Shown piece after piece: positions 1,548 through 64,000 of a stretch of 64,000 bases of DNA. Under the pieces are notes generated by a model. That model was not told where the DNA came from. It searched no databases and saw only the letters and a list, made by a program, of their open reading frames with translations. The stretch is taken from NCBI GenBank assembly GCA_918797485.1, contig CAKKNE010000006.1:3286001-3350000 (forward strand), written 5' to 3'. Numbering within the stretch: the stretch's first letter is position 1; each line of letters opens with the position of its first letter. Both the position numbers and the translations under genes were made by a program. Source of the DNA: Pelagomonas calceolata (taxonomy: Eukaryota; Sar; Pelagophyceae; Pelagomonadales; Pelagomonadaceae).

Positions 1548-2877
1548 ATGAAGGACCATCCCCCGCGGCGCCGCCCGGCGGCGCTCCTGCCCCGACTCCT
1601 TCTCGCCGCGCCCGTCGCGGTCTTCATGGTGCTCTACGCGCGCACCGAACGAACGCGACGACCGGAAACCACGAAGGCGGGCCTCATCTATTTAAGAATC
1701 GCGGACCCGCGCCACCGCCAGGACGCGTTCCGCGCGAGCTGGCCGCCGTGGCTGCCCGCGCTCGAGGCCTCGGCGCGCGCGAACGCGCGGAGCGTGACGT
1801 ACTATTTTATCGGCGCGCCGGCGAACGTGACGTGCGTCAACTGCGTCGAGATTCCATTGGACCTCGCCGGCCTGCGGGCGCGCGTCGCGAAGTATCTGGG
1901 CGTCGCCGACATGGAAATCAAAAGCGTCAAAAATAAAATCTGCGACCTCAAGCCCATGTGGCCCGTGCTCTTCCCCGAGGTCAGCGCGCGCCACGAGTGG
2001 GTCGGCTTCGCGGACGCCGACGTGCTCTTCGGGGACCTCGCGGCCGAGGTCGACCTGCTGACGGCGTCTGATGATTTGCTCGTGCCCTCGAGCTGGCACC
2101 CCTACCCCCTGGCGAACGGCAACTTCATGCTCTTCCGGTCGACGGCGCGCGTGCTGCAGGCCTTCCGGGGCGCCGGCTGGCGCGAGGCGGTGCGCTCGCC
2201 GGGCTACTCGGTCTTCGACGAGTGGCACGGGCGCGGCTCCGCGACGGACTTCGGCCACGCGCTGCTCGAGATGCACCTGAACGGCAAGCTCCGGCCGAAG
2301 CCGACGAGCCGCCTGTTCCTGCAGGACGCGGTGTCCGGCGGCCGCGCGCTCATGGAGCGGCCCGCGGCGCTGCGCGCGACGTGGGCCCGCGGCCGCCTGC
2401 GCGTGGCGTACCGGGGCCCGTGCTACTGCTCCAAAGACGTCGTCCCCCACTGTGTGGAAATCAACCAGTGTGCCGGGTGCACTCATGAAGTCATTTCTCG
2501 GCAATGAGGCTGCCGTGCTGGCTCCGTCGAGTGGTGGGAGACCCATACCGCCACGCCGTTGAGAAGGCGTCGCGTCGATGGCGTGGAGGTCGACGCGACG
2601 ATTCAGCAGAACACGCCGCAAAATTTTGATTTTCACACAGGTCCCCCAGTTCGCCATCGCGCACTGCTCCGAGTGCGTCTTCCGGGCGGGGGCGACGCCG
2701 GACGTCACGGTCGCGCGGGACCTCGAGGTGCTCGCGTACCACATGCTCTACACGAAGCCTTGGATCGGCCGGAAGTACGCCGTCGCGCCGGCGCTGCGCG
2801 ACTGCGAGGCGTTCGCGCTCTGGAAGAGCGAGACGAGCCGCGAGCACCACCTAGAATGCGTCGACGCGCCCCGATAG
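1548..2877 (+). CDS. DUF6625-like type II glycosyltransferase, split by an introner
   Basis: Exons 1548-2441 and 2641-2877, 376 residues after removing the introner at 2442-2640 (phase 0). A hydrophobic segment at residues 13-31 (LLPRLLLAAPVAVFMVLYA) suggests a Golgi type II anchor. The core KICDLKPMWPVLFPE followed by WVGFADADVLFGDL near residues 130-165 is typical of the DUF6625 GT-A-like family; DAD is the likely metal site. The spliced exon 2 adds the Cys-containing tail HCSECVFRAG and ends at TAG 2875-2877. Without splicing the frame stops inside the element at 2507, so splicing is needed for the full product. The target sugar is unknown. Confidence 0.75.
2450..2640 (+). mobile_element. 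Introner IE-1
   Basis: 191-bp nonautonomous DNA transposon. Ends CTGTGTGGAAATC and GATTTTCACACAG are inverted copies with one mismatch. The 8-bp target duplication GTCCCCCA is exact (2442-2449 and 2641-2648). The intron is 2442-2640: GT comes from the upstream target copy and AG from the element end. Element and gene run in the same orientation. It carries the GGCTCCGTCGAG variant. The internal hairpin arms TCGATGGCGTGG and its partner are present. Confidence 0.93.
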
Positions 2878-3155
2878 CGTCGTAACGTATGAGCACCTTC
2901 TCAAACCCATCGGAGCCTAATCGGAGCCGACTCAAGTTCGGCGGCGTGATAGCATAATCGATTTTTTTACGACGGGGTCAAGGGGGGGTCCGATGGGGAC
3001 CGATTAGTTGCGGGGACGTCTCGATCTTGGCGGCGCGAGGAAGGGAGAGGGGATCACAGAGCACGGCCGCGGCGTCGGCTCCGTCGCCGTCGCCCCGGTG
3101 CAGCGACGCCTCTAAATCGCGGGTGATGGAATTGATTAACTCAAGTTGAAGTTTC

Positions 3156-3183
3156 ACTAATGTACCGCATGCGGTACATTAGT
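3156..3183. repeat. 28-bp perfect palindrome
   Basis: Left half ACTAATGTACCGCA is the exact reverse complement of the right half, with no spacer. It lies beside an R1 copy that itself repeats TTAGTCTTAC and GTAAGACACTAG in opposite directions. It could form a cruciform or bind a dimeric factor; no function can be read from it. Confidence 0.85.
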
Positions 3184-3197
3184 CTTACGCTAGCATC

Positions 3198-3257: not shown

Positions 3258-3330
3258 GGGAGGGGTACGGGGGACCCTGCGACGTAACTAGCCTGAGCCT
3301 GAGCTAGCCTGAGCCTGAGCCTGAGCTAGC
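3258..3330 (+). repeat. R2 repeat, copy 1, with GAGCCT tandem tail
   Basis: About 45 bp: GGGAGGGGTACGGGGGACCC, then TGCGACGTAACTAGCCTGAG, shared with 15663-15709 and 24685-24730. The tail extends into repeated GAGCCT hexamers bracketed by GAGCTAGC. Confidence 0.75.
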
Positions 3331-7544: not shown

Positions 7545-10500
7545 ATGAAGGCGCGCCGCAGGAGCCGCCTCGCCGCGCTCGCGCTGGTCGTCGGCCGCGC
7601 GGCCGCGCAGACGCCGACCGCGTCTCCGACCTTCGAGACGTGGACGCCGACGTCGAAGCCGACGGATCGTCCGTCCAACACGCCGACGACCGGCGCGCCG
7701 ACGTACTGGACGCCGGCGCCCTTCGCGGCGCCGCCGGACGACTACGACCGCGACACGTTCGACCACGACCCCGGCACGTGCGGCAACTACGCGCCGAACG
7801 AGGTCTACACGGCGGAGGCGCTCGGGCTGAAGGGCGCCTACGCACTCGCCAACGACGGCGTGGACGGGGACTGCTGCTACGAGTACGTCCACAACGACTG
7901 CACGCACAACCCGACGGGCTTGCCGACCCTGGTGCCCACCGCGCTCCCGACAACCCAGCCCTCGGCGCTGCCCACGGTCGAGAAGCCGACGCCCATGCCG
8001 GTCTCGGACCCGACGAAGGTCCCGACGACCCTACCGACGTCGACGCCGACCTCGGCGCCGACGAAGGCGCCGACGAAGGTCCCGACGTCCCTCCCGACAT
8101 CCGTGCCGACGTCGGAGCCGTCGGAGGCGCCGTCGCCGGCGCCGTCGAAGGTCCCGACGGGCGTTCCGACGGAGCAGGACCCGACACCTTTGCCGACGAG
8201 CCCACCGTCGGCGGAGCCGACGTTAATCCCGTCTCCGACGCCGACGACGCCGCCGTCGTCGGCGCCCTCAGAGGCGCCGGTACCGGCGCCCACGAAACCC
8301 CCCACATCCATACCGACCACTCTGCCTACTTCGGAGCCGACGCCCACGTTCTCGCCGACGCGCACCCCGACGACCGTGCCGACGCCGGTCCCAATCTCCA
8401 AACCGACGCCGGGACCGTCAGCCGTGCCGACTCTCGTCCCGACCTCGTCGCCGTCGGCAAAGCCGACGTCCGAGCCGACGAAGTCGCCGACGACGATCCC
8501 GACCTCGCTGCCGACGGCGAGCCCGACGCCTTCGCCGTCGGCACCGCCGACCTCGGTGCCGACGTCGCCGACGTTTTTGCCAACTCCCCTCCCGAGCTCG
8601 GTGCCGACGTCGCGGCCGTCCGCCTTGCCGACGGCGTCCTGGTCGCCGACTGACTTGCCGACGTCCGTGCCGACGGCGCAGCCCCAGGTCTCGGCCAAAC
8701 CGACGGGGGTGCCGACCACGGTCCCGACGAGCGAGCCGACGATCCCCCTGCCGACGTCCGTGCCGACGGGCATCCCGACACCGGACCCGTCCGTGTCGCC
8801 GACGCCCGCGCCGACCGTGCAGCCGACGAACGGCGACTGCCTCGAGAAGATCACGGACTTCTGCCAGTGCACGTACGTGCTCTTCGAGGTCTCGCACACG
8901 CTCGCGCCGACGCCGGCGCCCACGACGGCGGTGCCCTCGCCGGGCCCGACGCCTGCGCCCACGCCGGTGCCCACGCCGGCGCCCACGCCCCGGCCCTCGG
9001 AACAAAAACCCCCGGGCGCTCCCGATCCGACGCCGAAGCCGACGCGGGTGCCGCGGCCCAGTCCGACCCGGGCCCCGACGAACGTGCCGACCTCGGTCCC
9101 GACGACGCCGCCGTCCCCCGAGCCGTCCGCCGTCCCGACGACGATGCCGACGTCCCGCCCGACGACCACCCCGACGCCCGCGCCGACGCCTCTGCCGACG
9201 CTCCCCCCGACATCCGTGCCAACGTCCATTCCGACGCCCGCGCCGATCCCGGTGCCGACGAAAATCCCGACGAGCGTCCCGACGTCGCTCCCGACGAGCG
9301 ACCCGACGGGCGTGCCGGTACCCGTCCCGACGGGCGCGCCGACGTTACCTCCGACGAGCGCTCCTTCGGCAAGCCCGACCTTCGACAGCTTCGCCCCGAC
9401 GGCCATGCCGACGACGGGAGCGCCGACGGTGAATCCGACGCTCGTCCCGACGTCCGTGCCGACGACCGAGCCGACGTCAGCGCCGACGAAAGTGCCCACC
9501 GCGCAGCCGTCGCTCGAGCCCACGTGGCAATCCCAAGCTCCAACCAAAACCCCGACGTCCGTGCCGACGACCGAGCCGACGTCCCAGCCGACAAGCGTGC
9601 CGTCCGGCGTGCCGACGAGCGCGCCGACGTCCCGGCCGACGCTGCCGCCGTCGCCCGTCCCGACGCCGTCGCCCACGGCCATGTGCCCTGCCATGGCGTG
9701 GCTCGAGGGCGATATGACGACGACCGGCTCCATGACGGCCCGGACCCGAGGGGCTCGAGGGGCTCCATGGACTGCGCACGAGGGCCCCGAGGCCATCACC
9801 AGCGCGGAGGACATCCGCGCCCAGGGCGGGCTTCTGGTCCTCGACCACAACAGGAATTGGGGCATCAAGGCCACGTGCTCCAACAACGCGGCCAAAAGTT
9901 GCGAGAGAGATGAGGATTGCGATCCCGGCAACACATGCGAGGCCAACGGCTGGGAGGGCGGCGTCAACCCGGCGAGCGGCATCGACGCCTGCTGCCGCTT
10001 CGTGCAGACGACGTGCCCGACGCCGCTGCCGTCGTCCGCGCCGACGTCGCCGCCGTCGCCGAGCCCGACGCTGCTGCCGTCGACGACCCCGACCAGCGTG
10101 CCGTCGAGCGTGCCCACGGTGCCGCCGTCGGAGACGCCGACGTCCGTCCCGACGGCCGAGCCCTCGGGAACCCCGACGATGATGCCGACGCCGCGGCCGA
10201 CGTTCACGCGCTACCCCTCGCCCGTGCCGACGATTCCCGCGCCCTCGCCCATCCCGACGAGCGTGCCCACGCCCTGGCCGACGACGGCGGTGCCCTCGCC
10301 GGGCCCGACGCCCGCGCCCACGCCGGCGCCCACGCCGGCGCCGACGAGCTGCCGCTGCGTCGCGTACTACGGCGTCAACCGCAACGTCGGCAACTTTGCG
10401 TTCCGCGACGACGGCCTCGTCTACGGCAGCCTGCCCGCGGTCAACCCGGCGTCGGAGCACTACGACCTCGCCTGGGCCGCCGGCGCGACGCTCAAGGACG

Positions 10501-11965: not shown

Positions 11966-13240
11966 ATGAAGCGCCTCCTCCTCGTCGTGGTCGGCGGCAG
12001 CGCCCTCGTCGCGCGACGCCCGACGACGATGCGCGCGATGCAACCAGAGGCGCGCGCCCTTCGGACGAGGATCAAGACCCAAACTAAAATAAAACGGACG
12101 CTCGTGACGTTAGGAAGGGTCGCGCTGCCGTCCATGATCGCCACGGGCCTCGGCTTTGAGTACTACGACAATTTAAGCAGCTTCATCCAGGCGAACTGGT
12201 TGGATGCGAACTCCATTAAATTCTTGAGCAGCGACGAGATTCAATTTTTGCCGTCCTTTTTAACGGTGATCTCGTTATTATTTTCCATATTGGCGGGGAG
12301 CGCGTACTCGAGCCTCTACGCGCAGCAGGAAGCTATCTACTTCGCTCTGTATGCCGAGGTCTCGGAAGCGAAGTCCCTGCTGGAGCAGATGGCGCTGGTC
12401 TGCGCCGGCCGGCCCTTTTATAGGGACGCGCTGCGGGCGATGCGCGCCTACGTGAAGCAGGATCTGAGGAGACTGGACGTCGCGCCCGCGGATTTGATGG
12501 CGCGGCCGCCGAACGAGGACCCCCTCGAGGCCATCATGTACCTCACTTCTGTTGGGGTCCCGTCCGTCGTCTACGAGACGGTGCGCGACCTGCGGCAGGC
12601 GCGGGGGAGGAGGTTGGGGGCGATGCAGCGGAAATTTCCCCGGCTCGGCATCTTCCTCCTCTATTTACTAGCGCTGCTGGAGCTGGCGGCGTTCCCGCTC
12701 CTGGGCGCGGGGACAACCATCTCAGCGCCCTCGACGATCTTACTGGTCCAGGGCGCGCTGTTCGGGGGGTCAGCGCCTGTGTGGAAATCAACCAGTGTGT
12801 CGGGTGCTCATTTCTCGGTGATGACGCGGCCGTGTTGGCTCCGTCGAGCGGTGAGGAAGGGCATCGCCACGCCATCGAGCAAGCGTCGCGTCTATGGCGT
12901 GGAGGACGACGCGACGATCAAACGCGACGTAAAATTTTGATTTCCACACAGGTTGTGCGGCGCCACCACGTTGGTGTTACGCATCATCCAGGAGCTCTGG
13001 CGCACGTCGGGCGGCGCCTTCAACGTCGACGACGTGTTGCAGACCATGGTGCGGGGGCTGGCGGACGAGCTCGACGGCCGGGCGGAGCGCCTCTCGGAGG
13101 ACGCCTTTCCGGCGCCCGACGCCGCTCGGGGCCTGACGCCGGAGCAGCAGCGCGCCTTCGAGGCGCTCGACGCGGCGGACGCGGCGGCGCCGCGGAGGCG
13201 GTGGTGGCGGCGCGGAGGCGGTGGTAACGGCGGAAGTTAA
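11966..13240 (+). CDS. DUF4239/bestrophin-like membrane protein, split by an introner
   Basis: Exons 11966-12768 and 12952-13240, 363 residues. The introner interval 12769-12951 is removed at phase 2, giving ALFGG-LCGATTLVLRII. The N-terminus (MKRLLLVVVGGSALVARRP) could target the ER or plastid. Hydrophobic segments near residues 48-60, 95-115 (FLPSFLTVISLLFSILAGSAY), 225-245 (LGIFLLYLLALLELAAFP) and at the splice junction suggest four membrane helices. The pattern, with a short helix pair, a long soluble loop and another pair, resembles the DUF4239 bestrophin-like family; this is a medium-strength call. The tail is Ala/Arg/Gly-rich. Its stop lies 14 bp from the stop of the next, convergent gene. 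Confidence 0.6.
12777..12951 (+). mobile_element. Introner IE-2
   Basis: 175 bp, ends CTGTGTGGAAATC and GATTTCCACACAG. The flanking 8-mers are GTCAGCGC and GTTGTGCG, so the target duplication is not recognisable beyond the leading GT; it may have diverged. The inferred intron is 12769-12951, GT-AG. The element follows the gene's orientation and carries the GGCTCCGTCGAG variant. Confidence 0.88.
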
Positions 13241-13254
13241 CTTGAAGTCATAAA

Positions 13255-15360
13255 TTATCGGTCACGGCCGCCGCCGACCCATCTCCGCGAGTCGTAGCGC
13301 GCGGCGCCCGCCTCCGCCGCGCGGCGCAGCGCCCGGGCTTCGCGGGAGACGGCTTGCGCGTCGGGCCAGGCGCGGCCAGCCATTGCCGCGACGTCGGCGG
13401 CGGAACGGAAGGCGCGGAGCGCGTCGAGCGCGTCGGCGGCGAGGCCCGCGGCTTCGGCCGCCGCGGGCGACGCGCCGAGGCCCTCGCGGGCCAGCGCCTG
13501 TGTGGAAATCAACCGGTGCGTCGGGTGCTACGCGAACGCGCCGTAAAATTTGAATTCCACGCGGGCCAGCGCGTCGCGCCACGCCAGCGCGTGGAAGAGG
13601 GCCAGGCCGTGCGGCGTGCCCCGCGCGCCGAGCGTCGCGCGGGGCAGCACGAGGCGCTCCCGGGCCGCGCGGCCCGCGGCCGCGGCCGCGAGCCCCGCCG
13701 CGCGCCGCGACGACGCGGCGCGCGGGAGCGCCGCCGCGAGCGCCGCCGCGACGTCGCCGGCCTCGAGCAGGTCGTCGACGCCGTCCAGGGCCTCCGCCGC
13801 GGCGTCCGCCTCCGCGCGGTCGGAGACGAAGCCGTGCTGCGCGCGCAAATATGCGTCGCGCCGCGCGACGGAGCACTCGGGCTGGACGTACGACACCGTG
13901 AGCGGGGCGCCCGCCTCCACTTTCCGCTGCGTCCAGACCTCGGCGAGGCCCCCGGCCGTCGTCAGCGCGACGCACGAGGGTTGCGGCGAGTCGTTCAGCA
14001 AACTCCTCAACCGGTAGAGGCCGGACTCGAAGGCGTTGAACTGCCACTTCTGCTCCAGCGTCGCGCCGTGCAGCTGCTCGATATGTAACGACGGGAGCGC
14101 CGCCGTGGGGTCCGCGATCGTCGCCTGCGCCTCGCGTGATAGGAGAGGCGCCTCGAGGAGCAGCAGCGTGCCGGCGTCGAGGTCGCGGGCCGCGGCGAGG
14201 CCGCGGCCGCCGCCCGTGGCCGGCGCGCTCACGAGGCGCAGCGCGGGGTGCGCGTAGAGGGGCGCGTAGCCGGGCGCGAAGGCCGCTAGGCGCGCGCAGG
14301 CGACGGCGGACGGCACGGGCACGGGCAGGGGCTCCGGCGGCGGCGCGGGCGGCGGCGGCGGCGGCGCGACGCCGTCGTCGTCCGACGACGAGCCGCCGAA
14401 GAGCGCCTCCGCCGCGGTCGCGCGGGCGAGGCCGACGCAGAAGCCGCAGCCCGCGGGCGGCACGCGCTCGGACAGCGCGCGCTCGACGGCCGCGGACGCG
14501 TGGTCGAGGCTCCAGGCGACGAGGACCAGCCGGTCCGTGGCCGCGACCAGCCGCGCGGCGACCTGGGGCCCGACGACGTCGGCCGGGTCGATCAAATTCG
14601 TCGCCGCGCCGCCCTGCGCGAAGGCCCGCGGCGCGGCGCCGGCGAGCGCCCCGAGCGCCGGCGCGTTATCTGCGGGCCCGACCCAGGCGAAGGCCGACTT
14701 CGCCCCGAAGCGCACGACGAGGCCCGATACGTTCGCGTCGTCCTCGTCGCGCACGGAAAAGCGTCGCTCCTCGAAACCTGGAGACGGCGCCATATCAAAG
14801 CTCTGCACCGTCCACGGGATTTTGATGATGGACGTGGACCGCAGCTCGACCTCGTCGAAGGCCTCCACGTAATTCGTGCGCTCGAAGCCGAGGGACGCGA
14901 AGAGTTTTAGGGAGGCGGCGTTCTCGGAGGCGATCTTCGCGACGAACGTCTCGAGATGGAGCGCCTCGCGGCCGTAGCGCAGCAGCAGCCGCACGGCCTC
15001 GCCCCCGAAACCGCGGCGCCGCCGTTCCGGAACCATGACGTCGACCTCGGCCGCGAGCGGCTCGTCGGGGACGGTCAGGAACGCGTTCACGTCGCCGACC
15101 ATCGCATTCGTGGGGAAGCGGTCGTCGCCATTCTTGAAGCACTGCGCCCGGTCCAAAACGATGAACGTGAGCTTCTTGGCGTCGTCGCGCCAGCTCTTCT
15201 GGTTCTCGACTTCCTCGTCGAGCGTCAGGCGCTCGCTCGCCGTCAGGGCCAGCAGGTCGTCGTCCTGCATCCAGGCGTGGTAGCGTTTTACGTACTTTTC
15301 CTTGTAGGGCACGAGGACGCAGCGTCTTCCTACGAGCACGGTGTCCTCGTTGAGGCGCAT
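13255..15360 (-). CDS. NAT9-like acetyltransferase / PAC4-like / SET-domain fusion
   Basis: Exons 15360-13573 and 13497-13255, 676 residues if the 75-nt introner intron is spliced GC-AG. Residues 1-195 are a GNAT acetyltransferase of the NAT9 type (VLVPYKEKYVKRYHAWM, RRRGFGGEAVRLLLRY, ENAASLKLFASLGF). Residues about 210-300 resemble the proteasome assembly chaperone PSMG4/PAC4 (KSAFAWVGP..., LVLVAWSLDHAS). Residues about 370-510 resemble a SET methyltransferase (GRGLAAARDLDAGTLLLLE, FNAFESGLYRLRSLLNDS, GAPLTVSYV), but the usual NHSC is NDSP and the post-SET Cys are missing. A helical tail follows. There is no stop between the parts. Introner loss restores WRDALAREGLG. Confidence 0.7.
13498..13564 (+). 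mobile_element. Introner IE-3, short deleted copy
   Basis: Only 67 bp. The left end CTGTGTGGAAATCAACC is intact and the right end GAATTCCACGCGG is decayed. Target duplication GCCAGCGC is exact (13490-13497, 13565-13572). The host gene runs on the minus strand, so the element is reversed relative to transcription. On that strand the target reads GCGCTGGC, giving a 75-nt GC-AG intron (13572-13498). A 63-nt GT-AG option (13560-13498) would leave four duplicated residues (ALAR). Confidence 0.85.
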
Positions 15361-24684: not shown

Positions 24685-24730
24685 GGGGAAGGGTACGGGG
24701 GACCCCGCGACGTAACTAGCCTGAGCCTGA
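24685..24730 (+). repeat. R2 repeat, copy 3
   Basis: GGGGAAGGGTACGGGGGACC, then CCGCGACGTAACTAGCCTGA, then GCCTGA; nearly identical to copy 1. Confidence 0.75.
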
Positions 24731-27910: not shown

Positions 27911-30310
27911 ATGATGAGGCGTGCTGCCCCCCTGCTGGCCCTCGTCGCGGCCGCGATGGCGGACGGCAACGCCACGAAACAATGCGAGCCCTTCCGCATC
28001 GTCAGCGACCACAACGGCTTCGGGAACGCGATCTTCGCGTTGTATCGAGCCTTCGCGCAAGCACAGCGGTGCGGGACATCAGTAGAAATCCTCTCCAATA
28101 AAGAGAAGCACGACCGCCTGTCTCGCATCTGCGCGCGCCTTACGTGTGAAGGCGCGACCATCAAGGACCAGGGTTCATTTAGATGGGGCGAGGATCGAGC
28201 TGGTTTATTATCGACTTCCTTGGGGGGCCAGGAGAACGCCTGCCCGCCCGGGTGTGGGCTGCGGGGCGGCAAGCGTATTCATGTTACTCGCATGCCAGTC
28301 GATTCTGCAAAGTTCACGCCCTCCAACAATGGCGCGTGGCTGGCGCCGTTGACATGCGTCGGTGGTGATAATACTGGTAAGTTCACCACAGCAGCACATA
28401 TCCGGTCGATCCGCTTTGATTTTGAAAAATCGCCGAAGGAGGTCCTGACGCGCGCGCGGACCCACCCCGACGACCGGGAGAATGATACGATGTCGTCCTA
28501 CAAAGGGCGCGACGACGGTCACATGTTGTACGACGTGGACGAGTGGCGGTTCCTCGCCAATCATATACGAGACGGTGTGAATAACATCTACATCGCCTCG
28601 GACAACGCGCCGGCGCGCGATGAATTAGCAATGAGGATCGCCGATGGTGGAGGCACGGCGTGCTTCGTTAACAGAGCGTCGGGCCACTCGTCCTGGCATT
28701 ATGGGGAGGAGGCCGACGACCACGCGCTGACGGACTGGTGGCATTTAGCACAAGCCCAGACCATCCACCAGATCGATTTGCGGTGCCGGGGGAGGACGGC
28801 GCATTCCTGCCAGTTCAATCGCAAAAGATGTCCCCGGGGCTCGGTCAAGCGCGGCCGCAACAACGCCGGGTCAAGCCACTGCCGCGGGTCCTCCTTCTCG
28901 CACGCGGCGCACCGGCTCTACGCGGGCACTCGAACGCGCGCCTACACGTGCGTTAATTGTCAGACCTTGTCGTCGGCGGCGCCGGGGGCCAAGGAGTCGC
29001 GTCGCGACGCCGACACGGCGGCGGCGGCGGCGGCGGCAGCACCCGCCGCGGCAATCAAAGGCAACTGCACGTCCGACATCGAACGGAAACTTATTGAACT
29101 CCTCCCCGGCCCGGGCATCCTATCAAGAGGAGAGCTGAGCAAGAAAATCGCGTGGGTCCCCGACGAGCGAAAGTCGTGCGTCGTCGCGCGGAGCTTGCTG
29201 GAGATCCGCGCGACGCTAAACCCGGCGCACGACCTCGTGGAGGCCGTATCCAAAAGCGTGTCCGGGCGACGCACGACGCGGCTCTCGGCGACGACGCGGA
29301 GGCGCTCCCGCAAGGCCCTCGGCGACGTCTTCTTCGAGGCGTTTCTGGACATTGCGTCAGATAGGCTCCTGGCGCTGGACGCCTGCCCCGCATCGACTCC
29401 GACGAAAACGTTGATCTGGTTCGTCACGCGCCGCGACGCCAAAGCTCGGCTCTGCGTCAAATTGGCATTGGCGGCGCTCGAGGCCGAGGCGCGAGGCTGG
29501 GGTTTGGGACTTGTCCATACTGATCCAGAAGCCGCCGCGGCCGTCGTCGACGCCCTGCCGGAGCGCTGCCGCGGCCGCGTCGCCCTCAAATCGGCCAAAG
29601 GGCTTGCTGACGTGATCCTAATGAAGCAGAAATGGGGCGACGATAATCCCCAATTTACGAGGTGGGACCTGTCCTGCCTCCAGGCGTCTTCGGTCTACTA
29701 CGAGGGGCTGGACGCGCCCGTTGTGATCGCGGGCGGCGAAGATGTTTTAGTGAGACGCCCGATCACGGACGACGAACTGGCCTACACGATGCTCGGGGCG
29801 CCGTGGCGGCGGACGCAGATTAGGTTCGGGGGCAACGGGGGCTTCGCCGTGCGCGACCCGGCTTTTGTCAGGGCCGAAGGCCGTGTGGAAATCAACCAGT
29901 GCGTCGGGTGCACGAACCGGCATCGCCACGCCATCGAGAAGGCGTCGCGTCGATGGCGTGGAGGTCGACGCGAAGATTCAGCAGAACGTTCCGCACAGGC
30001 CGAAGGGATTACGATCGACCCGCGCGAGAATTTGGACGCGTGGGCGAACGCCTGCCGGAAGATGGGTAAAAGGGCCGACGACGTCCACCTCTCATATAAG
30101 CTCGGACTGCTCTATGATCGAGGGAACCTAGGCGCGTTCAAGCCCGCGTCGCGGGAAGTTTTGTTGAACTTCGCCGCGGAGATGGTCGAGAGCCCGGGCG
30201 ACCCCGCGGCGCTCCACGCGGCCTGGCGCCATCTATCGATAGACTACGTCGTCCGGCAGTTCGAGAAGGTTGTTAGTGTCGTCCGCGACTTCGAAGCGCC
30301 TGCGGCCTAA
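27911..30310 (+). CDS. Two-domain glycosyltransferase (fucosyltransferase-like plus DUF5672), split by an introner
   Basis: Exons 27911-29872 and 29999-30310, 757 residues if the introner is removed; 799 if retained, since it is in frame without stops. Signal peptide MMRRAAPLLALVAAAMA. Residues about 20-300 (FRIVSDHNGFGNAIFALYRA, NNIYIASDNAPARDELAMR) recall fucosyltransferase-like GT-B proteins; this part is a weak call. A Cys-rich and Ala-rich linker follows. Residues about 480-757 match DUF5672: DAPVVIAGGEDVLVRRPIT, LAYTMLGAPWRR, GGNGGFAVRDPAFVRAEG. The splice at phase 0 gives FVRAEGITIDPREN, restoring the pre-insertion reading. Having two GT-like domains in one secretory protein suggests it makes a disaccharide unit; this is inference. 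Confidence 0.65.
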   Translation: MMRRAAPLLALVAAAMADGNATKQCEPFRIVSDHNGFGNAIFALYRAFAQAQRCGTSVEILSNKEKHDRLSRICARLTCEGATIKDQGSFRWGEDRAGLLSTSLGGQENACPPGCGLRGGKRIHVTRMPVDSAKFTPSNNGAWLAPLTCVGGDNTGKFTTAAHIRSIRFDFEKSPKEVLTRARTHPDDRENDTMSSYKGRDDGHMLYDVDEWRFLANHIRDGVNNIYIASDNAPARDELAMRIADGGGTACFVNRASGHSSWHYGEEADDHALTDWWHLAQAQTIHQIDLRCRGRTAHSCQFNRKRCPRGSVKRGRNNAGSSHCRGSSFSHAAHRLYAGTRTRAYTCVNCQTLSSAAPGAKESRRDADTAAAAAAAAPAAAIKGNCTSDIERKLIELLPGPGILSRGELSKKIAWVPDERKSCVVARSLLEIRATLNPAHDLVEAVSKSVSGRRTTRLSATTRRRSRKALGDVFFEAFLDIASDRLLALDACPASTPTKTLIWFVTRRDAKARLCVKLALAALEAEARGWGLGLVHTDPEAAAAVVDALPERCRGRVALKSAKGLADVILMKQKWGDDNPQFTRWDLSCLQASSVYYEGLDAPVVIAGGEDVLVRRPITDDELAYTMLGAPWRRTQIRFGGNGGFAVRDPAFVRAEGRVEINQCVGCTNRHRHAIEKASRRWRGGRREDSAERSAQAEGITIDPRENLDAWANACRKMGKRADDVHLSYKLGLLYDRGNLGAFKPASREVLLNFAAEMVESPGDPAALHAAWRHLSIDYVVRQFEKVVSVVRDFEAPAA
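29881..29998 (+). mobile_element. Introner IE-4, internally deleted
   Basis: 118 bp. Left end CCGTGTGGAAATC (one change); right end decayed to TTCCGCACAG. Exact target duplication GCCGAAGG (29873-29880, 29999-30006). It lacks the ACTAAGTCATT...GAGCGG middle. The target begins with GC, so clean removal is a 126-nt GC-AG intron. The only nearby GT (29883) would shift the frame. Retention adds 42 codons without a stop. Confidence 0.9.
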
Positions 30311-41013: not shown

Positions 41014-41036
41014 CTAGTGTCTTACAGGCCGCTAGC
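41014..41036 (+). repeat. R1 intergenic motif, core copy
   Basis: Identical to the copy at 18621, and followed by a related GATTTCCTAAACGCGGGAGC tail. Confidence 0.8.
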
Positions 41037-41076
41037 GCGCGGGATTTCCTAAACGCGGGAGCCCTTTGCTTGCTTG

Positions 41077-49727: not shown

Positions 49728-51259
49728 TCACGACAGGAAGTCGTCGTCGTCGGCGTAGGCCTCCGCCAGCGCCGCGGCCGTCGTGCGCGCCGTCAGCGTC
49801 GTCGTCACCACGACCAACAGCACGCCCGCTATGAGTAAAACGGCGTCCTCCGCCACCGGGAGGCCGTTGCGCTTTGCCAACAACAAATGTACCAAAGGAG
49901 GCAGCGCAAATGATAAAGTGCACACCGCGACGGCGCCCACTAAACCGACGACCAAGGCGAAGGCCGGCATGGCGTAGGCGACGAGCGCCGCGGCGACGGC
50001 GACGAGGCCTCTTACCACAAGCCGACGGCACCGCGGGATCCGCGCCTCGACGATCTCGCCGCAGCCCACCAAACCAATAGGAATCGACGCCACGCAGGCC
50101 GCGGCCATGGCCAACCGTACCAAAGTAGGAGTAACCCCCATGGGGAGGGCGTCCAAGACGTTGCCGGGCACCGAGTCGTCTGGTGCTGGCCCATCATAAA
50201 GTCGGGCCACGCCGGCGCCCACGATCACGTACGCCGCGAACGCCGTAAACAAAGCGACTCTTTGTGCTGCGGCAAAGCGCTCGGGAGCGGCCATCGATGC
50301 TTCCAAATGCAGCGCCACGGGCGCGACCTGTGTGCACCCGACAAGTCCTCACTAAGTCATTTCTCGGCGATGACGCGGCCGTCCTGGCTCGGTCGAGCGG
50401 TGAAGAACCGGCATCGGCACGCCATCGAGCAGGCGTCGCGTCGATGGCGTGGAGGACGACGCGAAGATTCAGCACGAACGCGCCGTAAAATTTTGATTTC
50501 CACACAGGTCGCGACGCCGAAACAAAAGGCCATCACTCCCACCGCGGCCCCCACATCAGCGACGGAGTCGGGCTTCGTCCAGTCGAAGGTGCCGCTCTGC
50601 GCCCATCCCAATCTTTCCCTTCTCAAAACGCCGTAGAGCGCGATGGCCGCGAGCGAGCAGGCGAGGGCTACCAACGCAGCAGCTCCCGCGGCCGCGAGCG
50701 AGCCGAAGTCGTCGACCAACGCGAGCGGTACGGCGGCCGCGGCGGCCAGCGCGACGTCGACGCCGAGCGGCAGTGCTAAGGGAGTAGCTCTCACGAAGTC
50801 GTGGAGCGCTACTAAATATGCCACAGCTACGCCAAACATCAAAACGAAGAAGACGGCCTCGACGACGCCCGCGACCGCCGCGCCACAGACCTCGCGGGTC
50901 AGCGCCGCGAGCGGGGACTCGCCGCCGCCTTCGTTAAATCGACGCAGCGCATCGGCGTCGAGGAGGTCGCGCGCCTGGATGAGCCGGCGCCCCGCCCAAT
51001 CATTCCACGCCAACAACGCGAGCAGCGCCAGTGCGCATGGCAATACGCCTCCGGTCGAGAATGCGTGCGGCACAGCGAGCACGCCTGTACCGATACAAAA
51101 CTTTAGCATCGTCGTCACAGCCCCGAGAAATGACGTGTTGCCCGTCTTGCTCCCGCTGCCGGCGAGTGGCAGGGTCTCGCTGGGTCTACGCGAGCCGAGT
51201 GGTTCCGGCATTGCTGCAGCCTCGTCTTTGAGCACGAGTGGTTGCAAAATGTAGGGCAC
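49728..51259 (-). CDS. Amino acid transporter, AAAP/SLC38-like, split by an introner
   Basis: Exons 51259-50516 and 50327-49728, 447 residues. Introner removal at phase 0 gives AFCFG-VAPVALHLEASM. N-terminal family block: TSFLGAVTTMLKFCIGTGVL, then AVPHAFSTGG, as in AAAP transporters. About ten to eleven hydrophobic helices follow (for example VVEAVFFVLMFGVAVAYLVA and LALVDDFGSLAAAGAAALVA; FTAFAAYVIVGAGVARL in exon 2). It likely moves amino acids across the plasma or vacuolar membrane with H+ or Na+. The AFCFG..HLE block after the splice is a conserved family feature, which supports the junction. Confidence 0.82.
50328..50507 (+). mobile_element. Introner IE-5
   Basis: 180 bp; left end CTGTGTG then a deletion of about 20 bp to the GTGCACCCGAC palindrome; right end GATTTCCACACAG intact. 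Target copies are GGCGCGAC (50320-50327) and GTCGCGAC (50508-50515), 7 of 8 matching. The host is on the minus strand, so the element is reversed; on that strand the target is GTCGCGAC and the intron is 50515-50328, GT-AG. GGCTCGGTCGAG variant. Confidence 0.92.
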
Positions 51260-53785: not shown

Positions 53786-55115
53786 ATGGGCAAGTACACG
53801 GCCTCCGACGGCAAGGAGTTCGACACGAAGCGCGAATGGCGCAAGTACGAGATGCTCCTCATGTACACCTTCAAGGAGCAGACGGGCCACACCTTCGATA
53901 TGAAAAAGCCCGGAGACGTCAACGGCCAGCAATTTGATATGATGAACCTGACGAAGTAGGATCTCGGCGTCCCACGTCGGTGCCTTCACTTCCATACGAC
54001 TCGTCTCCAGGAGTGATGGCCGTGGGTGGTCTGTTTTTCGAATTTGGGGTCAATCGTGATGCTCCGCGCAGGTGCGAAGCGGTGGTGGCCGACAGCACGG
54101 ACATGGTCCAGATCGACGAGTGTATCGATTGCAAGGTGTTCCTCGGGGCCTCTGGTGAAAGTGTTTTTATCAGAGACTGCAAGGGGTGCACGTTCTATGT
54201 CGCGTGTAAACAACTCAGATTAAGGGACTGCCACGACTGCAAGTTCTCCCTGTATTCGCAGACGGAGCCCGTCATCGAGACGTCCGATGGGATCGTATTC
54301 ACGCCCTTCGCGGGAGGGTTCGACGGGCAAGAACAATGTATGCGTTCCGTGAATTTGGACCCTTCCATTAACTTCTGGTGGGGGATTTTTGATTTCAACG
54401 ACGAGGCGAAGACGGTCCGTGACTCAGTGTTGTGAATGAACTTGAACTTGATCCGGTGGAGACGATGGCGTCTTCATGAAGCCACGTCGCCTCGACGCCG
54501 TCGACGTGTCCGCGCGCGAGTCTACGCGTCTCGCGACCGCGTCGTTCCACGCAGGGCAAGAACTTTAAAGTAGTGAACGTGCCCATGGAGCCCTGGTGGC
54601 CGCTCGGTGAGGCTTCCCAGGTATGTGAACAGACCGCTCCCAATAGTGCGACGCTGCCTTCCACGCTCACTGATGATGGCGGTGGTCACGGCGGCCCGTC
54701 ACAAATGAACTCCTTCAAGATCGGCACGAGCGCCGAGGACGCCCAGAACAAGGTCGACTCGCAAGCGCCGCCGCCGCCGCCAGACTTGGAATTAATTCCC
54801 GACGAGGTCCAGAAGCCCGCGGCGGACTGGACGGCCTTCCGGGTCGGGGTTCGGTACGATCCTCCACTATTAGCTCTGGAGTGGAAAGGAAATGAGAAAA
54901 CTCTGAGGAAGGACATCCCGTTTCCCGAGGTCACGGAGTTGGCGGCTTTGGTGGCGGAGGTCGCCGACGACGAGTGCGCCGCCGCGGTCTTAGATCACAT
55001 GGTGAAGACGCACGGCGCGCAGTGGTTGGATTTTGAGAAGTTCTTCTCGAAGAAGCAGGTCTTACGGCTGGTGGACATGGTCCTCCAGGGCGGGCCGGAC
55101 TCGGTGGAGATGTAG
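53786..55115 (+). CDS. TBCC-domain (RP2/CAP-like) protein
   Basis: Exons 53786-53955, 54072-54414 and 54555-55115, 357 residues. Exon 1 reads MGKYTASDGKEFDTKREWRK. Intron 1 (53956-54071) is phase 2 and joins MMNLTK to CEAVVADSTD. Intron 2 (54415-54554) is phase 0 and joins DFNDEAKT to GKNFKVVNVP. Residues about 55-170 are a TBCC beta-helix: MVQIDECIDCKVFLGASGES, VFIRDCKGCTFYVACKQLRL, CKFSLYSQTEPVIE, and the INFWWGIFDFNDE end. Such proteins act as GTPase activators for tubulin or Arl proteins. The FIRDC Arg may be the catalytic arginine. The C-terminus (AKPA-type and acidic) has no recognised domain. Intron 2 belongs to the second intron family. Confidence 0.8.
54415..54554 (+). repeat. Second intron family (IE2-like), copy A
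   Basis: A 140-nt intron whose right half closely matches copy B at 56396-56557: TCGCCTCGACGCCGTCGA, GAGTCTACGCGTCTCGCGA and TCGTTCCACGCAG. It has no clear inverted ends or target duplication, so its mobility is inferred from repetition only. Confidence 0.7.
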
Positions 55116-55401: not shown

Positions 55402-57114
55402 ATGATGCGCCGCCGCGCGACGCTCCTCCTCCAGGCCGGCGTCCTGCAAGCGCTCGTGATGCCCCGACAACCACCCATCAAAACAGCATTGCGAGCCGCC
55501 CCGGACATGGAGGACCTCACGCGACGAGTGTTTTGTAGCCGAGAACTAAACATGGCGAACATCGAGGCCGTGGGCTTCGACATGGATTATACGTTAGCGC
55601 AGTACAACGAGGCCTTCGACATGCTGGCGTTCGAAGGCGCAAAAGATAAGTTAATCGACATGGGCTACCCCAGCGAAGAGATACAAAAATTCAAGTTCGA
55701 CCCCCTGCAGCACACGCGTGGGTTGGTCATAGATAAGCGACGCGGAAACATCCTGAAGATGGATAGACATAAATATGTACGAAGGGCCTACCACGGGACG
55801 AGGGAGCTATCTAGAGCAGAAAGAAAAGCCCAATATATCTTAGATGCGGGCGCGACGCCGACGTTCGTCGGCAACGATTATGTGAACGTCGACAGTCTCT
55901 TCCAGTTGGTCGACGCGTCGCTATTCGCGCAGCTCGTAGATGTATTAGACGAGGGCGGGCCGTCGTATGCCCAAGCGTTTCGGGACGTGAGGCATGCGGT
56001 GGACTTGTGTCATCAGGACGGCGTCATCAAGGACCAGGTCGCGATTGAACCATCTAAATACATAATACCAGATGATAACTTGGTACCCATGTTGACACAA
56101 TATCGATTGGCAGGCAAGAAAGTGTTCCTACTCACCAACAGTTTATTTGACTACACGAACGTGGTCATGAACTTTCTAGTGGGGAAGGATGTGAATGATA
56201 GGGCCTGGGTCGATCTCTTCGACGTTGTTGTGGTCGGTGCCGGCAAGCCCGCCTTTCTGGGGGATGGTCGACGGGACATGCTGCGCGTCGACGCTGGCAC
56301 GAACATGGGCACGCTCCATAATTTTGTAGGGAAGCCCGTGTCGGAGGTCGGCGGCCCCGCCTTCCTGCAGCGCGAGGGAAAGATCTTCCAGTCCGGTGCT
56401 GACTCGGCGTCCGTTTCCGACCGTTTCTGAACTTCAAGGTCGCGTCGATGGCGTCGACGTGATGCCACATCGCCTCGACGCCGTCGATGCGGCCGCACGA
56501 GAGTCTACGCGTCTCGCGAGAGCTGCGGCAGTTCCGCGACGGAATCGTTCCACACAGGTACCTGGAAGGAGCTCCACGAGATGCTCGAAGTCGGTTCCGG
56601 CTCGGAGGTGCTGTATGTCGGCGACCACATGTACGGCGACATGATCCGCTCCAAAAGATCGCTGGGCTGGCGGACGACGCTGATCGTGCCCGAGCTCGAG
56701 CCTGAACTCGTGCTGGACGCTCAGTTGGACTTGCCATTACGTCATGTGGTAGCAGAGAAGGAGAAAGAATGCGAAGAAGCGGAGCTGGCCGTGCAAGAAT
56801 TGCGTTTATCTTTATTATCGCAGGGTCTGGATTTTCTTGAATCTGACGAGAGAGAAGCATTAGAAAAAGCACAGGAGGAGTCGCGAGAAGCTCTGAAGGA
56901 GGCGAGGGACGCCTTGCACCGGGCCTACCACCCCCACTGGGGCCCGCTCTTTAGATCGGGCAACCAGGCGTCGAGGTTCGCGAAGCAGGTCGTGGACTAC
57001 TCCTGCATTTATACCTCAAGAGCGTCGAATTTGTTAGCGACGTCGCCCTCGCGGACCTTCCGGCCGCCTTCCGACTTCATGCCGCACGACGATGATGAGC
57101 GGCCGCCCATGTAA
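55402..57114 (+). CDS. HAD-family 5'-nucleotidase (NT5C2/NT5DC-like)
   Basis: Exons 55402-56395 and 56558-57114, 516 residues. The N-terminus (MMRRRATLLLQAGVLQALVM) looks like a targeting peptide, possibly plastid or mitochondrial. Residues about 53-60, GFDMDYTLAQY, hold the HAD nucleophile (DxDxT). KKVFLLTNSLFDYTN is motif II and VLYVGDHMYGDMIRSKRSLG is the DD-type motif IV after the splice. The intron (56396-56557, phase 1) joins GKIFQSG to TWKELHEML, matching family order. Residues about 390-440 are a charged helix. It probably removes phosphate from purine nucleotides. The stop is 3 bp from the convergent MoaC gene. Confidence 0.82.
56396..56557 (+). repeat. Second intron family (IE2-like), copy B
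   Basis: A 162-nt intron related to copy A in the adjacent gene. It carries a near-perfect hairpin: GCGTCGATGGCGTCGACGTG with the partner arm CGCCTCGACGCCGTCGATGC. It ends CCACACAG like the introners, but the left end does not match CTGTGTGG. Confidence 0.7.
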
Positions 57115-60685: not shown

Positions 60686-61085
60686 CCTTATCTGCTGCCC
60701 GGCGGTACGTGTGCGCGCGGCTGGTCTCACGCTGCCTTTTGCTGTGTGTCCGAGCCGCGCGCCCGCGAGCGGCGGCTCCTGCTTGCTGCCCGCGCCTGTT
60801 GAGGGTGGCTGGAGGCTGCCCGCCTCGCGAATTGTGCCGATCTTTGCCGTAGCGCGGGAGGCCAAGCGCTGTGCAGAGCGCCAGGCTGGACAGCCAGTTG
60901 GCGCCCCCCAATCTCTGGCGGTCGGACGCCGCGCGGGGCCACGCCCGTTTGTTTGCGGCGTCGAGGAGCTCTCTTCGACGGCGCCCCCGACGGCCCGAGT
61001 GGGCAGCGCCCGCGTGGGCGGCGCCCCCAGCAGACGGTCGTGACCGACCGAGGGCAGCGCCTGCGTGGGCGGCGCCCCCGAGAAG
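60686..61085. other. Divergent intergenic region with short tandem repeat
   Basis: A unit around GGGCAGCGCCCGCGTGGGCG then GCGCCCCC occurs twice (about 61003-61039 and 61052-61080), with a weaker earlier copy. It lies in the probable 5' leader of the dioxygenase gene. No gene seen. Confidence 0.55.
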
Positions 61086-62648
61086 ATGATGCGCTACGCT
61101 TTGCTGGTGGCGCTCGTCCGGGCGAGCAGCCACTGGCTCGACGCCTACGAGCAGCGGGGCTACTTCGTGCTGCCGCGCGTCTTCTCGGGCGCGCGGCTGA
61201 TGCACCTGCGGGCCGCGGTCGCGCGGTACCTCCGCGACCACGGGAAGGATCATGAGTACATGATGCGCGGCGAGAAGCTGGGCGGCTGGTGCGCGTCAGT
61301 GCATAAATCAAGTCGTCGCGTCTCCGCGCGGCCGTGTTATCGCGGAGACACACAGGTTCGTGCCCGGCATCGAGCGCATCGACCAATTAAAAATCTTCGA
61401 GGCCGAGGTCGCGAGGGACGAGCGGCTGGCGAGGATATTAAGAAGAATACTGGGAGACGACTTTAAGCTCCTGGAACGGAGCGAGATCTACGTGTCGAGG
61501 ATCGGCAACTGGCACTCCGACGACTTGTACGACGCCTTTGATTTGTACGCGACATCATTACCGTACGTCGCCGAGGAGTGGTGCCCGCCGACGGGCCCGA
61601 AGAGGCCGCCGCCCCTCGCGAAGCCCAACACGCGCGCCGCCCCGCCGAAGGACGACGACGAGCTCTGCGCGCAGGGCATGGAGTATGGCTTCGGGAAGGC
61701 GACGACGTTCTGGGCGGGCGAAGGCACCGCCCACGAGCGGCGGGTGACGACGGTCGCCGTCTACCTCGAGGACCACGCCGACAACGAGGGCGGGCTGTCC
61801 GTGGCGCCCGGGAGCCACCGGAACGCGAGCGTGCACGGCGACACCGTCGCGCGATTGGATCCGTGGAGCCCGTCGCACCGGCCCGAGGCCGAGACGCCCT
61901 TCGATTTGATACGGAGCGGCGCGGGCGACGCCGTCGTCTTCGACTCGCGGCTGGTGCACCGGGGCCCGCGCGACGACGTCGCCGACTTCAAGCGGGAGCT
62001 GAGCCGGTCGAGGCGGACGGTGGCGACCTGTGTGGAAACCAACCAGTGCGTCGGGTGCACCCGACAATTCTTCACTAAGTCATTCCTCGGCGATGACGCT
62101 GCCGTGCTGGCTCCGTCGAGCGGTGAGGAACCGGCACCGCCACGCCATCGAGCACGCGCAACGCGCCGTAAAATTTTGATTTCCACACAGGTGGCGACAT
62201 TTTCGTTCGGGCGGAACAACGCAGTGTCCGAGGCTGTGTGGAAATCAACCAGTGCGTCGGGTGCAATTCTTCACTAAGTCATTTCCCGGCGATGACGCGG
62301 CCATCCTGGCTCGGTCGAGCGGTGAGGAACCGGCATCACCACGCCATCGAGCAGGCGGCGCGTCGATGGCGTGGAGGTCGACGCGAAGATTCAGCACGAA
62401 CGCGCCGTAAAATTTTGATTTCCACACACAGGTCCGAGGCCTTCTCGCGGGGCATGCGCTTCCGCACGGACATGCTCTTCAACGGCAGCATCTGCGGCGC
62501 GCAGCGCGACAAGAATGGGGATCCGGACTTCGGCGCGCCGTGCGCGTTCGACGCCGTCCGCGAGGACCTGGCGCGGCGGCCGCTGCGGGGCGTGCCGGAC
62601 GGGAGGCCGTTCCTCGAGGCCCGCCGGGACCTGGCTCGGAGGCGATGA
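61086..62648 (+). CDS. Phytanoyl-CoA dioxygenase-like enzyme with two introners
   Basis: Exons 61086-61288, 61356-62019, 62191-62225 and 62432-62648, 372 residues. Intron 1 (67 nt, phase 2) joins GEKLGGW to FVPGIERID. Introns 2 and 3 are introners (phases 0 and 2) flanking a 35-nt microexon coding VATFSFGRNNA. The PhyH fold is seen in WLDAYEQRGYFVLPRVFSGA, NWHSDDLY (HxD iron ligands), VAVYLEDHADNEGGLSVAPG, SHRNAS, and VVFDSRLVHRGPR (distal His and Arg). It uses Fe(II) and 2-oxoglutarate to hydroxylate a substrate, here unknown. The C-terminus (FNGSICGAQRDKNGD) lies after the introners. The stop is 53 bp from the stop of the convergent ABC gene. Confidence 0.8.
62028..62190 (+). mobile_element. 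Introner IE-6
   Basis: 163 bp, ends CTGTGTGGAAACC and GATTTCCACACAG. Exact target duplication GTGGCGAC (62020-62027, 62191-62198). Intron 62020-62190, GT-AG. It has the full 16-bp palindrome GTCGGGTGCACCCGAC and the GGCTCCGTCGAG variant, and lacks part of the right hairpin arm. Confidence 0.95.
62234..62431 (+). mobile_element. Introner IE-7
   Basis: 198 bp, the longest and most complete copy. Ends CTGTGTGGAAATC and GATTTCCACACACAG (one extra CA). Exact target duplication GTCCGAGG (62226-62233, 62432-62439). Intron 62226-62431, GT-AG. GGCTCGGTCGAG variant; shares the TTTCCCGG change with IE-8. It starts 43 bp after the end of IE-6. Confidence 0.95.
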
Positions 62649-62701
62649 CACGAGTAATTACCATCGGATGGACCATTGCGGGGCGGGCGGAGGCGAAGCG
62701 A

Positions 62702-64000
62702 CTACGCGGGCGCGACCGCGCCGGTGCGGCTCGGCGCCCGCAGGCACCACACCGCGCACGGGTGGCAGAACATCGTCCAGCCCATCAGGCTAATTCCCAC
62801 GAGTAGGCCCATCGGCGAGTAATAGAACCTGTGTGGAAATCAAATTTTTACGGCGCGTTCGTGGCCGTCGAGTCATCGACGCGACGCCGGCTCGATGGCG
62901 TGGCGATGCCGGTTCCTCGCCGCTCGACCGAGCCAGGACGGCCGCGTCATCGCCGGGAAATGACTTAGTGAAGAATTGTCGGGTGCACCCGACGCACTGG
63001 TTGATTTCCACACAGAGTAGAACATCGTGGGGGCCTTGAACCAGTAGTCGTGCCTGCCGCATCTCCGCAAGTGCCCCTTCGATTCGTGATGCTCCCACCA
63101 AACGCACGTGTCAAAGCGTTGTGGTACAAGAGCGGAGACCATCCAGAGGCCGGTAAAGAAGAAAAACCAAGCGAAACTGTGGAAGCACAGATTATCCCAC
63201 GCGAACCGCGTGCAGCCGCAACTCGTCGCCTCGGAGAAGACCACCTTATCGAGTTCCTTCTGCGCGTCGTCGTCGGCCTCGGCCTGGAGCATCTCGGCGA
63301 TCTCCCGGCCGAGCCGCGACTGCGCCAGACCCTCCTCGCCGCCGGCAATCCTCAAAAACACCTTCTCCATCGTCGCGCGCGCGAGCGAAAAGTCGATCAC
63401 GCCGAGCCGCGCGCAAGCGTCGTCGTCGAACGCGCGGAACGCGAGCGCCGGCGTCCGCCGCGGGTCGACGCCCGCGAGCTCGAGCGTCGCAATGTCCGCG
63501 TCCGCGGCGGCGACGTCGACGTCCGGCGACGAAAAGGCCTCGCGCGCGAACGCCACGAGGTCCGCAACGTGCGCGTCGTCCCGCGTCTCCAGGCGGCACG
63601 AGATCTCGTAGCCCGCCGCGTAGCGCTCCTTGAGCTCCTGCGGCGTCCCGATGCAGCGCATGGTGCCCTTGACCATGATGCCGAGGCGGTCGCAGAGGAG
63701 ATCAGCCTCGCCCATCGAGTGTGTCGTCAGGACGACGGCGCGGCCCTTCATAGTGACCTTGATGAGGTCCCAGAGATTCCTTTGCGCTCCTGGATCCAGG
63801 CCCGACGACGGCTCGTCCAGCAACACCACCGAGGGGCCGCCGACCAGCGCCACCGCGACCGCCAGCTTGCGCTTCATGCCCCCCGACAGGCGGCCGGCCG
63901 CTTTGTCGGCGTGGTCGGACAGGCCGACGACGGCGAGCGCTTGCTCCGCGGCGTGGCGCGCGTCTCCTTCGATGTCGACGCCCCGGAGCCGCGCGAAGAG
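62702..64000 (-). CDS. ABCA-type ABC transporter, C-terminal part, split by an introner; 5' end beyond window
   Basis: Exons >64000-63024 and 62828-62702; the frame is open to the window edge. It encodes the second half of an ABC ATPase: signature LSGGMKRKL, Walker B VVLLDEPSSGLDPGAQRNLW, then the H-loop VVLTTHSMGEADLLCDR and the ABCA-type CIGTPQELKERYAAGYEISC. A regulatory stretch and a membrane segment (FHSFAWFFFFTGLWMVSALV) follow. Removing the introner at phase 2 gives PTMFYYSPMGLL and a last helix (VGISLMGWTMFC). ABCA proteins move lipids. The N-terminal part and the other half-transporter lie outside this window. Confidence 0.82.
62829..63015 (-). mobile_element. Introner IE-8
   Basis: 187 bp, placed on the minus strand and so in the same orientation as its host. 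Ends CTGTGTGGAAATC and GATTTCCACACAG. Target copies AATAGAAC (62821-62828) and AGTAGAAC (63016-63023), 7 of 8 matching; on the host strand GTTCTACT and GTTCTATT. Intron 63023-62829, GT-AG. GGCTCGGTCGAG variant. One hairpin arm is altered (TCGATGACTCGAC). Confidence 0.94.

What the first reader, a model, noticed from the sequence alone, without database searches (positions are those of the whole stretch)
2442..63023. Eight introners, each an exact intron, in seven genes
Eight related elements with CTGTGTGG...CCACACAG ends lie inside coding frames. Seven have recognisable 8-bp target copies (five exact, two 7 of 8). In all, removing the element plus one target copy restores an open, family-consistent reading. 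The phases are 0 (five) and 2 (three), none at 1. The system is known from Aureococcus; what is new here is this local set and its variants. The 8-bp duplication would suit a hAT-like transposase, but no autonomous partner is in the window.
Basis: partly seen in the sequence, partly recalled or inferred. Interest (0 to 1): 0.85.

Follow-up and report, generated by a model that had tools for sequence, protein, structure and literature searches.

The report
Jumping-DNA introns in an alga
Eight related short jumping-DNA elements sit inside seven genes of what looks like a marine alga, each apparently acting as an intron that is cut out of the messenger RNA; this way of making introns is already published, and this is a new local set with some informative variants.

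Summary
Observation confirmed. Eight related elements (67-198 bp; mean pairwise identity 0.89) lie inside coding frames of seven genes. Seven have 8-bp target copies (five exact, two 7 of 8); e2 has none. Phases are 0 (five) and 2 (three). In the gene's direction all eight predicted introns begin GT (six) or GC (two), from the target copy, and end AG, from the element. They fit introners: non-autonomous DNA transposons that make introns, published for Aureococcus and Micromonas. No RNA was available. Added here: e3 and e5 are antisense to their genes; frame cannot separate exact removal from a published mode keeping 12 nt, but the one junction inside a Pfam match (e5) favours exact removal (121.2 against 113.7 bits); e4 and e6 stay open in frame if retained; the missing phase 1 is what GY placement in codons predicts. 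Two further introns (54415-54554, 56396-56557), 78% identical in unrelated genes, form a second, probably older family. Gene density and intron length fit Pelagomonas better than Aureococcus anophagefferens; the host is not proven. hAT parentage is not established.

The parts
2442..2640 (+). e1 predicted intron (first target copy GTCCCCCA 2442-2449 plus element 2450-2640); second copy 2641-2648; gene with DUF6625 domain; phase 0; sense
12769..12951 (+). e2 predicted intron (GTCAGCGC 12769-12776 plus element 12777-12951); 3' flank GTTGTGCG matches at 2 of 8; Bestrophin-like gene; phase 2; sense
13498..13572 (-). e3 predicted intron, 75 nt (element 13498-13564 plus gene-sense first copy 13565-13572, GC donor); other copy 13490-13497; GNAT/SET gene on - strand; phase 0; element antisense to gene
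29873..29998 (+). e4 predicted intron, 126 nt (first copy GCCGAAGG, GC donor, plus element 29881-29998); second copy 29999-30006; gene without Pfam match; phase 0; sense; open in frame if retained
50328..50515 (-). e5 predicted intron (element 50328-50507 plus gene-sense first copy 50508-50515); other copy 50320-50327 (7 of 8); Aa_trans transporter gene on - strand; phase 0; element antisense to gene
62020..62190 (+). e6 predicted intron (first copy GTGGCGAC plus element 62028-62190); second copy 62191-62198; PhyH gene; phase 0; sense; open in frame if retained
62191..62225 (+). 35-nt predicted exon between e6 and e7
62226..62431 (+). e7 predicted intron (first copy GTCCGAGG plus element 62234-62431); second copy 62432-62439; same PhyH gene; phase 2; sense
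62829..63023 (-). e8 predicted intron (element 62829-63015 plus gene-sense first copy 63016-63023); other copy 62821-62828 (7 of 8); ABC transporter gene on - strand; phase 2; sense
54415..54554 (+). i10: second-family intron (GT...CCACGCAG), phase 0, downstream of a TBCC domain; inferred from frame and from similarity to i9
   Evidence: the Pfam match does not span the junction
56396..56557 (+). i9: second-family intron (GT...CCACACAG), phase 1, in a 5'-nucleotidase gene; 107 of 137 aligned positions identical to i10

Best explanation
Each element is an introner: a short, non-autonomous DNA transposon with about 15-bp terminal inverted repeats (CTGTGTGGAAATCAA...TTGATTTCCACACAG), inserted by a transposase encoded elsewhere, with duplication of 8 bp of coding sequence. 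The first target copy, read in the gene's direction, supplies the 5' splice site (G then T or C); the element's outer end supplies the 3' splice site (CACAG). The spliceosome removes one target copy plus the element and restores the coding sequence. Because both terminal repeats read outward as TTGATTTCCACACAG (branch-point-like TTGAT, pyrimidines, CACAG), either orientation can serve; six are sense and two antisense. Shown from sequence: the family, inverted ends, target copies, orientations, GY and AG ends, frames. Inferred: splicing, branch point, transposase, history.
For: Eight related copies. Target copies of at least 7 of 8 in 7 of 8, against 0.22% at random. Gene-sense first copy begins GY in 8 of 8 (1.3e-6 at the coding GY frequency of 0.183), while the other end of the copy gives GY on the opposite strand in 4 of 8. 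AG at the gene-sense end in 8 of 8, including e3, whose opposite end has changed to CCACGCGG. Retention meets an in-frame stop in 6 of 8. The two sides of e5 match Aa_trans 2-212 and 211-406, and exact removal scores 121.2 bits against 113.7 with 12 nt kept. Consensus element (203) plus 8 is 211 nt, near the intron-length peak of about 210 bp that PMC9481584 reports for Pelagomonas calceolata and likens to Aureococcus introners (passages).
Against: No RNA, so splicing is not shown. e2 has no target copy. e4 and e6 are translatable if retained. e4 and e5 lack TTGAT at the functional 3' end. For e6 the PhyH match is the same with the element removed or retained (41.6 and 41.8 bits), so Pfam does not discriminate there. 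The 35-nt exon between e6 and e7 does not fit the nucleosome-sized spacing that I recall from the Aureococcus work. Being inside coding-like sequence in 8 of 8 is not significant (0.77^8 = 0.13).
Confidence: 0.85

Rival explanations
1. The elements are introners, but the 5' splice site is inside the element (CTGT|GTGG), so that 12 nt (8-bp copy plus 4) stay in the mRNA and add four codons.
For: Published for family 4 of an Aureococcus sp. (Fig. 2F legend of PMC9860276, passage). All eight keep GTGG at positions 5-8 of the gene-sense end, and the 12 nt are in frame and stop-free in 8 of 8.
Against: GY at the start of the first copy in 8 of 8 would be unexplained; the e5 junction scores 7.5 bits worse with the 12 nt kept.
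Confidence: 0.09
2. Some elements (e4 and e6 first) are retained and translated as insertions rather than spliced.
Against: e6 keeps a GT donor and a full 3' end, and both keep GY...AG; the other six would meet a stop.
Confidence: 0.12
3. Ordinary MITE insertions in pseudogenes; the open frames after removal only reflect GC-rich sequence with few stops.
For: Several other frames across the junctions are also open for more than 120 codons.
Against: The chosen frames have GC3 above GC1 above GC2 and six of seven genes carry a Pfam match; e5 gains a full-length Aa_trans match on removal; GY...AG in 8 of 8 is not expected of passive insertions.
Confidence: 0.03

Closest known systems
Introners of Aureococcus anophagefferens (Huff, Zilberman and Roy 2016; not held; known to me from memory and from passages of citing papers)
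   Same: Short non-autonomous elements with terminal inverted and direct repeats and canonical splice motifs (passage of PMC7789003); co-opted splice sites and insertion in both orientations (passage of PMC10228655); phase bias following codon bias (recalled); characteristic intron length near 210 bp (passage of PMC9481584).
   Different: Sequence similarity to the published elements could not be tested; the 35-nt exon between two insertions does not fit the nucleosome-sized spacing I recall.
Aureococcus sp. introner family 4 (PMC9860276, Fig. 2F legend)
   Same: 8-bp target copy; a 5' splice site is possible 4 bp inside the element.
   Different: There 12 bp are added to the transcript; here the evidence favours exact removal.
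Introner-length introns of Pelagomonas calceolata (PMC9481584, passages)
   Same: Intron peak near 210 bp, 0.45 introns per gene, compact GC-rich genome.
   Different: The passages seen give the length only; element sequences were not seen and supplements were not available.
Introner elements of Amoebophrya (PMC7789003, passages)
   Same: Inverted repeats inside the intron and short direct repeats at its ends.
   Different: Direct repeats of 3-5 nt and many non-canonical splice sites there; 8 bp and GT/GC-AG here.

Membership tests
Introner (intron-generating transposable element) | related copies at unrelated sites, each coextensive with an intron | tested here: met
   eight copies in seven genes; intron status from frame, GY...AG and one Pfam junction, not from RNA
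Introner (intron-generating transposable element) | splicing shown in RNA | not testable with these tools
   no RNA data
DNA-transposon type introner | terminal inverted repeats | tested here: met
   15-bp inverted ends in the consensus; end octamers with few changes
DNA-transposon type introner | target site duplication | tested here: met
   at least 7 of 8 bp in 7 of 8 copies; e2 not
DNA-transposon type introner | one splice site co-opted from the target copy | tested here: met
   indirect: GY at gene-sense start in 8 of 8 against 4 of 8 at the other end; no RNA
Aureococcus anophagefferens introner family | sequence similarity to the published elements | not testable with these tools
   no own genome and no eukaryote collection; three pattern scans of viral contigs and one of bacterial and archaeal genomes gave 0 matches
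hAT superfamily | 8-bp TSD and TIRs of 10-25 bp | tested here: met
   against the outline in PMC3942097; other superfamilies share this (recalled)
hAT superfamily | CA-type TIR start | tested here: inconclusive
   ends start CTGTG, which does not fit, but the motif is recalled and comes from no call
hAT superfamily | hAT transposase on a partner with the same ends | tested here: inconclusive
   no transposase family among Pfam matches of 36 products (7 spliced, 29 ORFs; 2 of the 40 ORFs and all shorter ones not scanned); in the strict scan to 12 kb the only pair beyond the elements was e2 with the end of e3; rest of genome not available

The most novel reading that the evidence does not exclude
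The terminal repeats are themselves orientation-independent 3' splice modules (TTGAT branch point, pyrimidines, CACAG on each outer end), and two successive waves of elements with the same CCACACAG end, a younger one with target copies intact and an older one (i9, i10) with target copies erased, made all ten introns that I could establish in this window.
Probability: 0.35. Interest if true: 0.5.

Novelty: new member of a known kind. Interest (0 to 1): 0.38.

Why it matters
It is a compact natural series of how transposons become introns: insertions with perfect target copies, deletion derivatives (e3 67 bp, e4 118 bp), copies that lost part of the 3' end, both orientations, and a second family without visible target copies. 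One RNA-seq data set would decide between exact removal and 12-nt addition, and the set shows that phase bias needs no explanation beyond where GY falls in codons.

Tried and rejected
Own genome: none held. Introner patterns in viral contigs and one pattern in bacterial and archaeal genomes: 0 matches. Autonomous element: no transposase family in the Pfam matches. TIR pairs with target copy: the strict scan to 12 kb gave seven of the elements (not e2) plus one cross-pairing of e2 with the end of e3, with 3 pairs in 20 shuffles; the looser scan to 600 bp gave six further pairs (two of them using an end of e2 or e3; one, 61010-61052, with an exact 8-bp copy) where 20 shuffles gave 0 to 4; these six were not pursued.

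Phase bias as a special property: rejected (5/0/3 against GY p 0.32, against GT p 1.0, against uniform p 0.11). Genic enrichment: not significant. Orientation 6:2: not significant (0.29). Predicted intron length a multiple of three in 5 of 8: not pursued. eL20 as an intron-bearing gene: rejected, PDB alignments run through without such a gap. PDB sequence searches with the e5 and PhyH proteins gave no alignment across a junction. PhyH score does not discriminate removal from retention of e6 (41.6 and 41.8 bits). RNA folding: the inverted ends pair in part in all eight predicted folds, but z runs from -0.86 to -4.38, so no structural claim is made.

Second family against first (i9, i10): profile score of i9 reached by 4 of 1000 shuffles; global alignment reached by 0 (i9) and 3 (i10) of 1000 shuffles; local alignment by 13 and 245 of 1000; random window pieces reach the local scores in 28 and 696 of 2000; 3' tails match the first family at 10 and 9 of 13, where 14 and 43 of 6576 AG sites, the elements included, do so. 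Hence 'probably related', no more. Other repeats in the self-comparison are intergenic or GC-rich coding similarity and were not taken as introns.

Full report
Observation. A profile built from the eight elements recovers them at 2450-2640, 12777-12951, 13498-13564 (in two pieces), 29881-29998, 50328-50507, 62028-62190, 62234-62431 on the + strand and 62829-63015 on the - strand, and no ninth full copy. Ends are CTGTGTGG...CCACACAG with few changes. The consensus is 203 bp with 15-bp inverted ends. Mean pairwise identity over aligned bases is 0.89, from 0.81 to 0.95 over 28 pairs. e3, e4 and e6 carry the largest internal deletions; others carry smaller ones. Flanking 8-mers match at 8, 2, 8, 8, 7, 8, 8, 7 positions; random flanks match at 7 or more in 0.22% of 400,000 draws. 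The octamer alone is only mildly enriched (48 against 37.8 expected); the evidence is the longer similarity and the target copies.

Genes. After removing element plus one copy, the coding frame is recognised by GC3 and by Pfam: e1 DUF6625, e2 Bestrophin-like (30.8 bits, under the curated cut-off of 32), e3 GNAT and SET, e5 Aa_trans, e6 and e7 PhyH, e8 ABC transporter; the e4 gene has no match. The genes of e3, e5 and e8 are on the - strand. Relative to their genes, e3 and e5 are antisense and the other six sense.

How it works. In the gene's direction the first target copy begins GT in six and GC in two (e3, e4), and the element ends in AG in eight of eight. At the GY frequency of these coding sequences, 0.183, eight of eight has probability 1.3e-6; the far end of the copy gives GY on the other strand in four of eight. 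That asymmetry supports co-option of the 5' splice site from the target copy. e3 is an internal control: its unused end has changed to CCACGCGG while the end used as 3' splice site is intact. Retention would meet an in-frame stop in six of eight; e4 and e6 would read through. The outward reading of each terminal repeat is TTGATTTCCACACAG; I read TTGAT as branch-point-like (recalled consensus, inference). It is present at the functional end in six of eight and absent in e4 and e5.

Exact removal or 12 nt kept. A published Aureococcus family keeps 12 nt (8 of target copy, 4 of element; figure legend of PMC9860276, passage). Here too the 12 nt would be in frame and stop-free in eight of eight, so frame cannot decide. 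One junction lies inside a Pfam alignment: for e5 the two sides match Aa_trans 2-212 and 211-406, exact removal scores 121.2 bits and the 12-nt version 113.7. With the GY result this favours exact removal, tested directly for e5 only. For e6 the PhyH match ends before the junction and does not change on retention (41.6 and 41.8 bits).

Phases. 0 (five), 1 (none), 2 (three) compare with GY positions 0.43/0.24/0.34 and GT positions 0.515/0.10/0.38 in the seven stop-to-stop frames; exact multinomial p is 0.32 and 1.0. The pattern is expected.

A second family. A self-comparison of the window showed 82% identity over 94 bases between 54443-54536 and 56428-56519. The second lies in an intron, 56396-56557, of a 5'-nucleotidase gene: the exons match the Pfam profile to 287 and from 280, and a joined piece matches 215-459 with 223.2 bits. 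The first lies in 54415-54554, where a GT...AG join continues the TBCC-domain frame and the unspliced frame meets a stop; the TBCC match itself does not span this junction. The two introns are 107 of 137 identical from GT to AG and sit in unrelated genes, so I take them as introners. Both end in TTCCAC(A/G)CAG like the first family; target copies are not visible. Their relation to the first family is probable, not proven: tests for and against are in Tried and rejected.

Host. No own genome is held. Pfam shows eukaryotic genes, such as eL20, TBCC and Tim10/DDP. GC is 65.0%, and 38 of the 40 coding-like open frames cover 77% of the window. PMC9481584 gives 63.6% GC and 16,667 genes in 32.4 Mb for Pelagomonas calceolata, 67.4% and 11,520 genes in 56 Mb for Aureococcus anophagefferens (table passage). 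The density here, roughly thirty genes in 64 kb by my reading of the frames, and the 211-nt full-length intron fit Pelagomonas or a relative better. That the host is a pelagophyte at all is an inference.

Known or new. The principle was published in 2016 for Aureococcus and Micromonas (paper not held, recalled; mentioned in passages of PMC7789003 and PMC10228655) and surveyed in 2022 (PMC9860276, passages; its main text does not name Pelagomonas). Insertion in both orientations is reported according to the review passage. A search for Pelagomonas calceolata with introner listed one paper, whose passages mention the intron-length peak. So this is a new local set of a known kind, possibly already covered in supplements or subscription papers that I could not read.

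Parent transposon. An 8-bp target copy and 15-bp ends fit the outline of hAT and also other superfamilies (recalled); the ends begin CTGTG, not the CA type I recall for hAT, and no transposase was found among the products scanned. The parent is unknown.

Noticed in passing
54415-54554 and 56396-56557: Two introns in unrelated genes (TBCC domain; 5'-nucleotidase) that are 78% identical from GT to AG: a second introner family.
   Followed up: yes
3258-3302, 15663-15709, 24686-24730: A repeat of about 45 bp (GGGARGGGTACGGGGGACCC...CTAGCCTGAGCCTGA), 87-96% identical, three copies outside the listed coding-like frames; function unknown.
   Followed up: partly
18621-18665 and 41014-41065: Repeat CTAGTGTCTTACAGGCCGCTAGCGC..., 87% identical, outside the listed coding-like frames.
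   Followed up: partly
12769-12776 and 13490-13497: The 5' flank of e2 (GTCAGCGC) matches the target copy of e3 (GCCAGCGC) at 7 of 8, while e2 has no copy on its own other side; chance or exchange between the two elements.
   Followed up: no
61010-61052: Degenerate CCGCGTGG...CGACCGAG pair flanked by exact 8-bp copies GGCAGCGC in the loose TIR scan; within what shuffles can give.
   Followed up: no
1292-1374 and 16197-16275: 78% identical stretches, the second inside an open frame; by eye a duplicated coding fragment rather than an intron.
   Followed up: partly
7910-10358: Long region of repeats with 12-bp periodicity (CCGACG...); not translated or followed.
   Followed up: no
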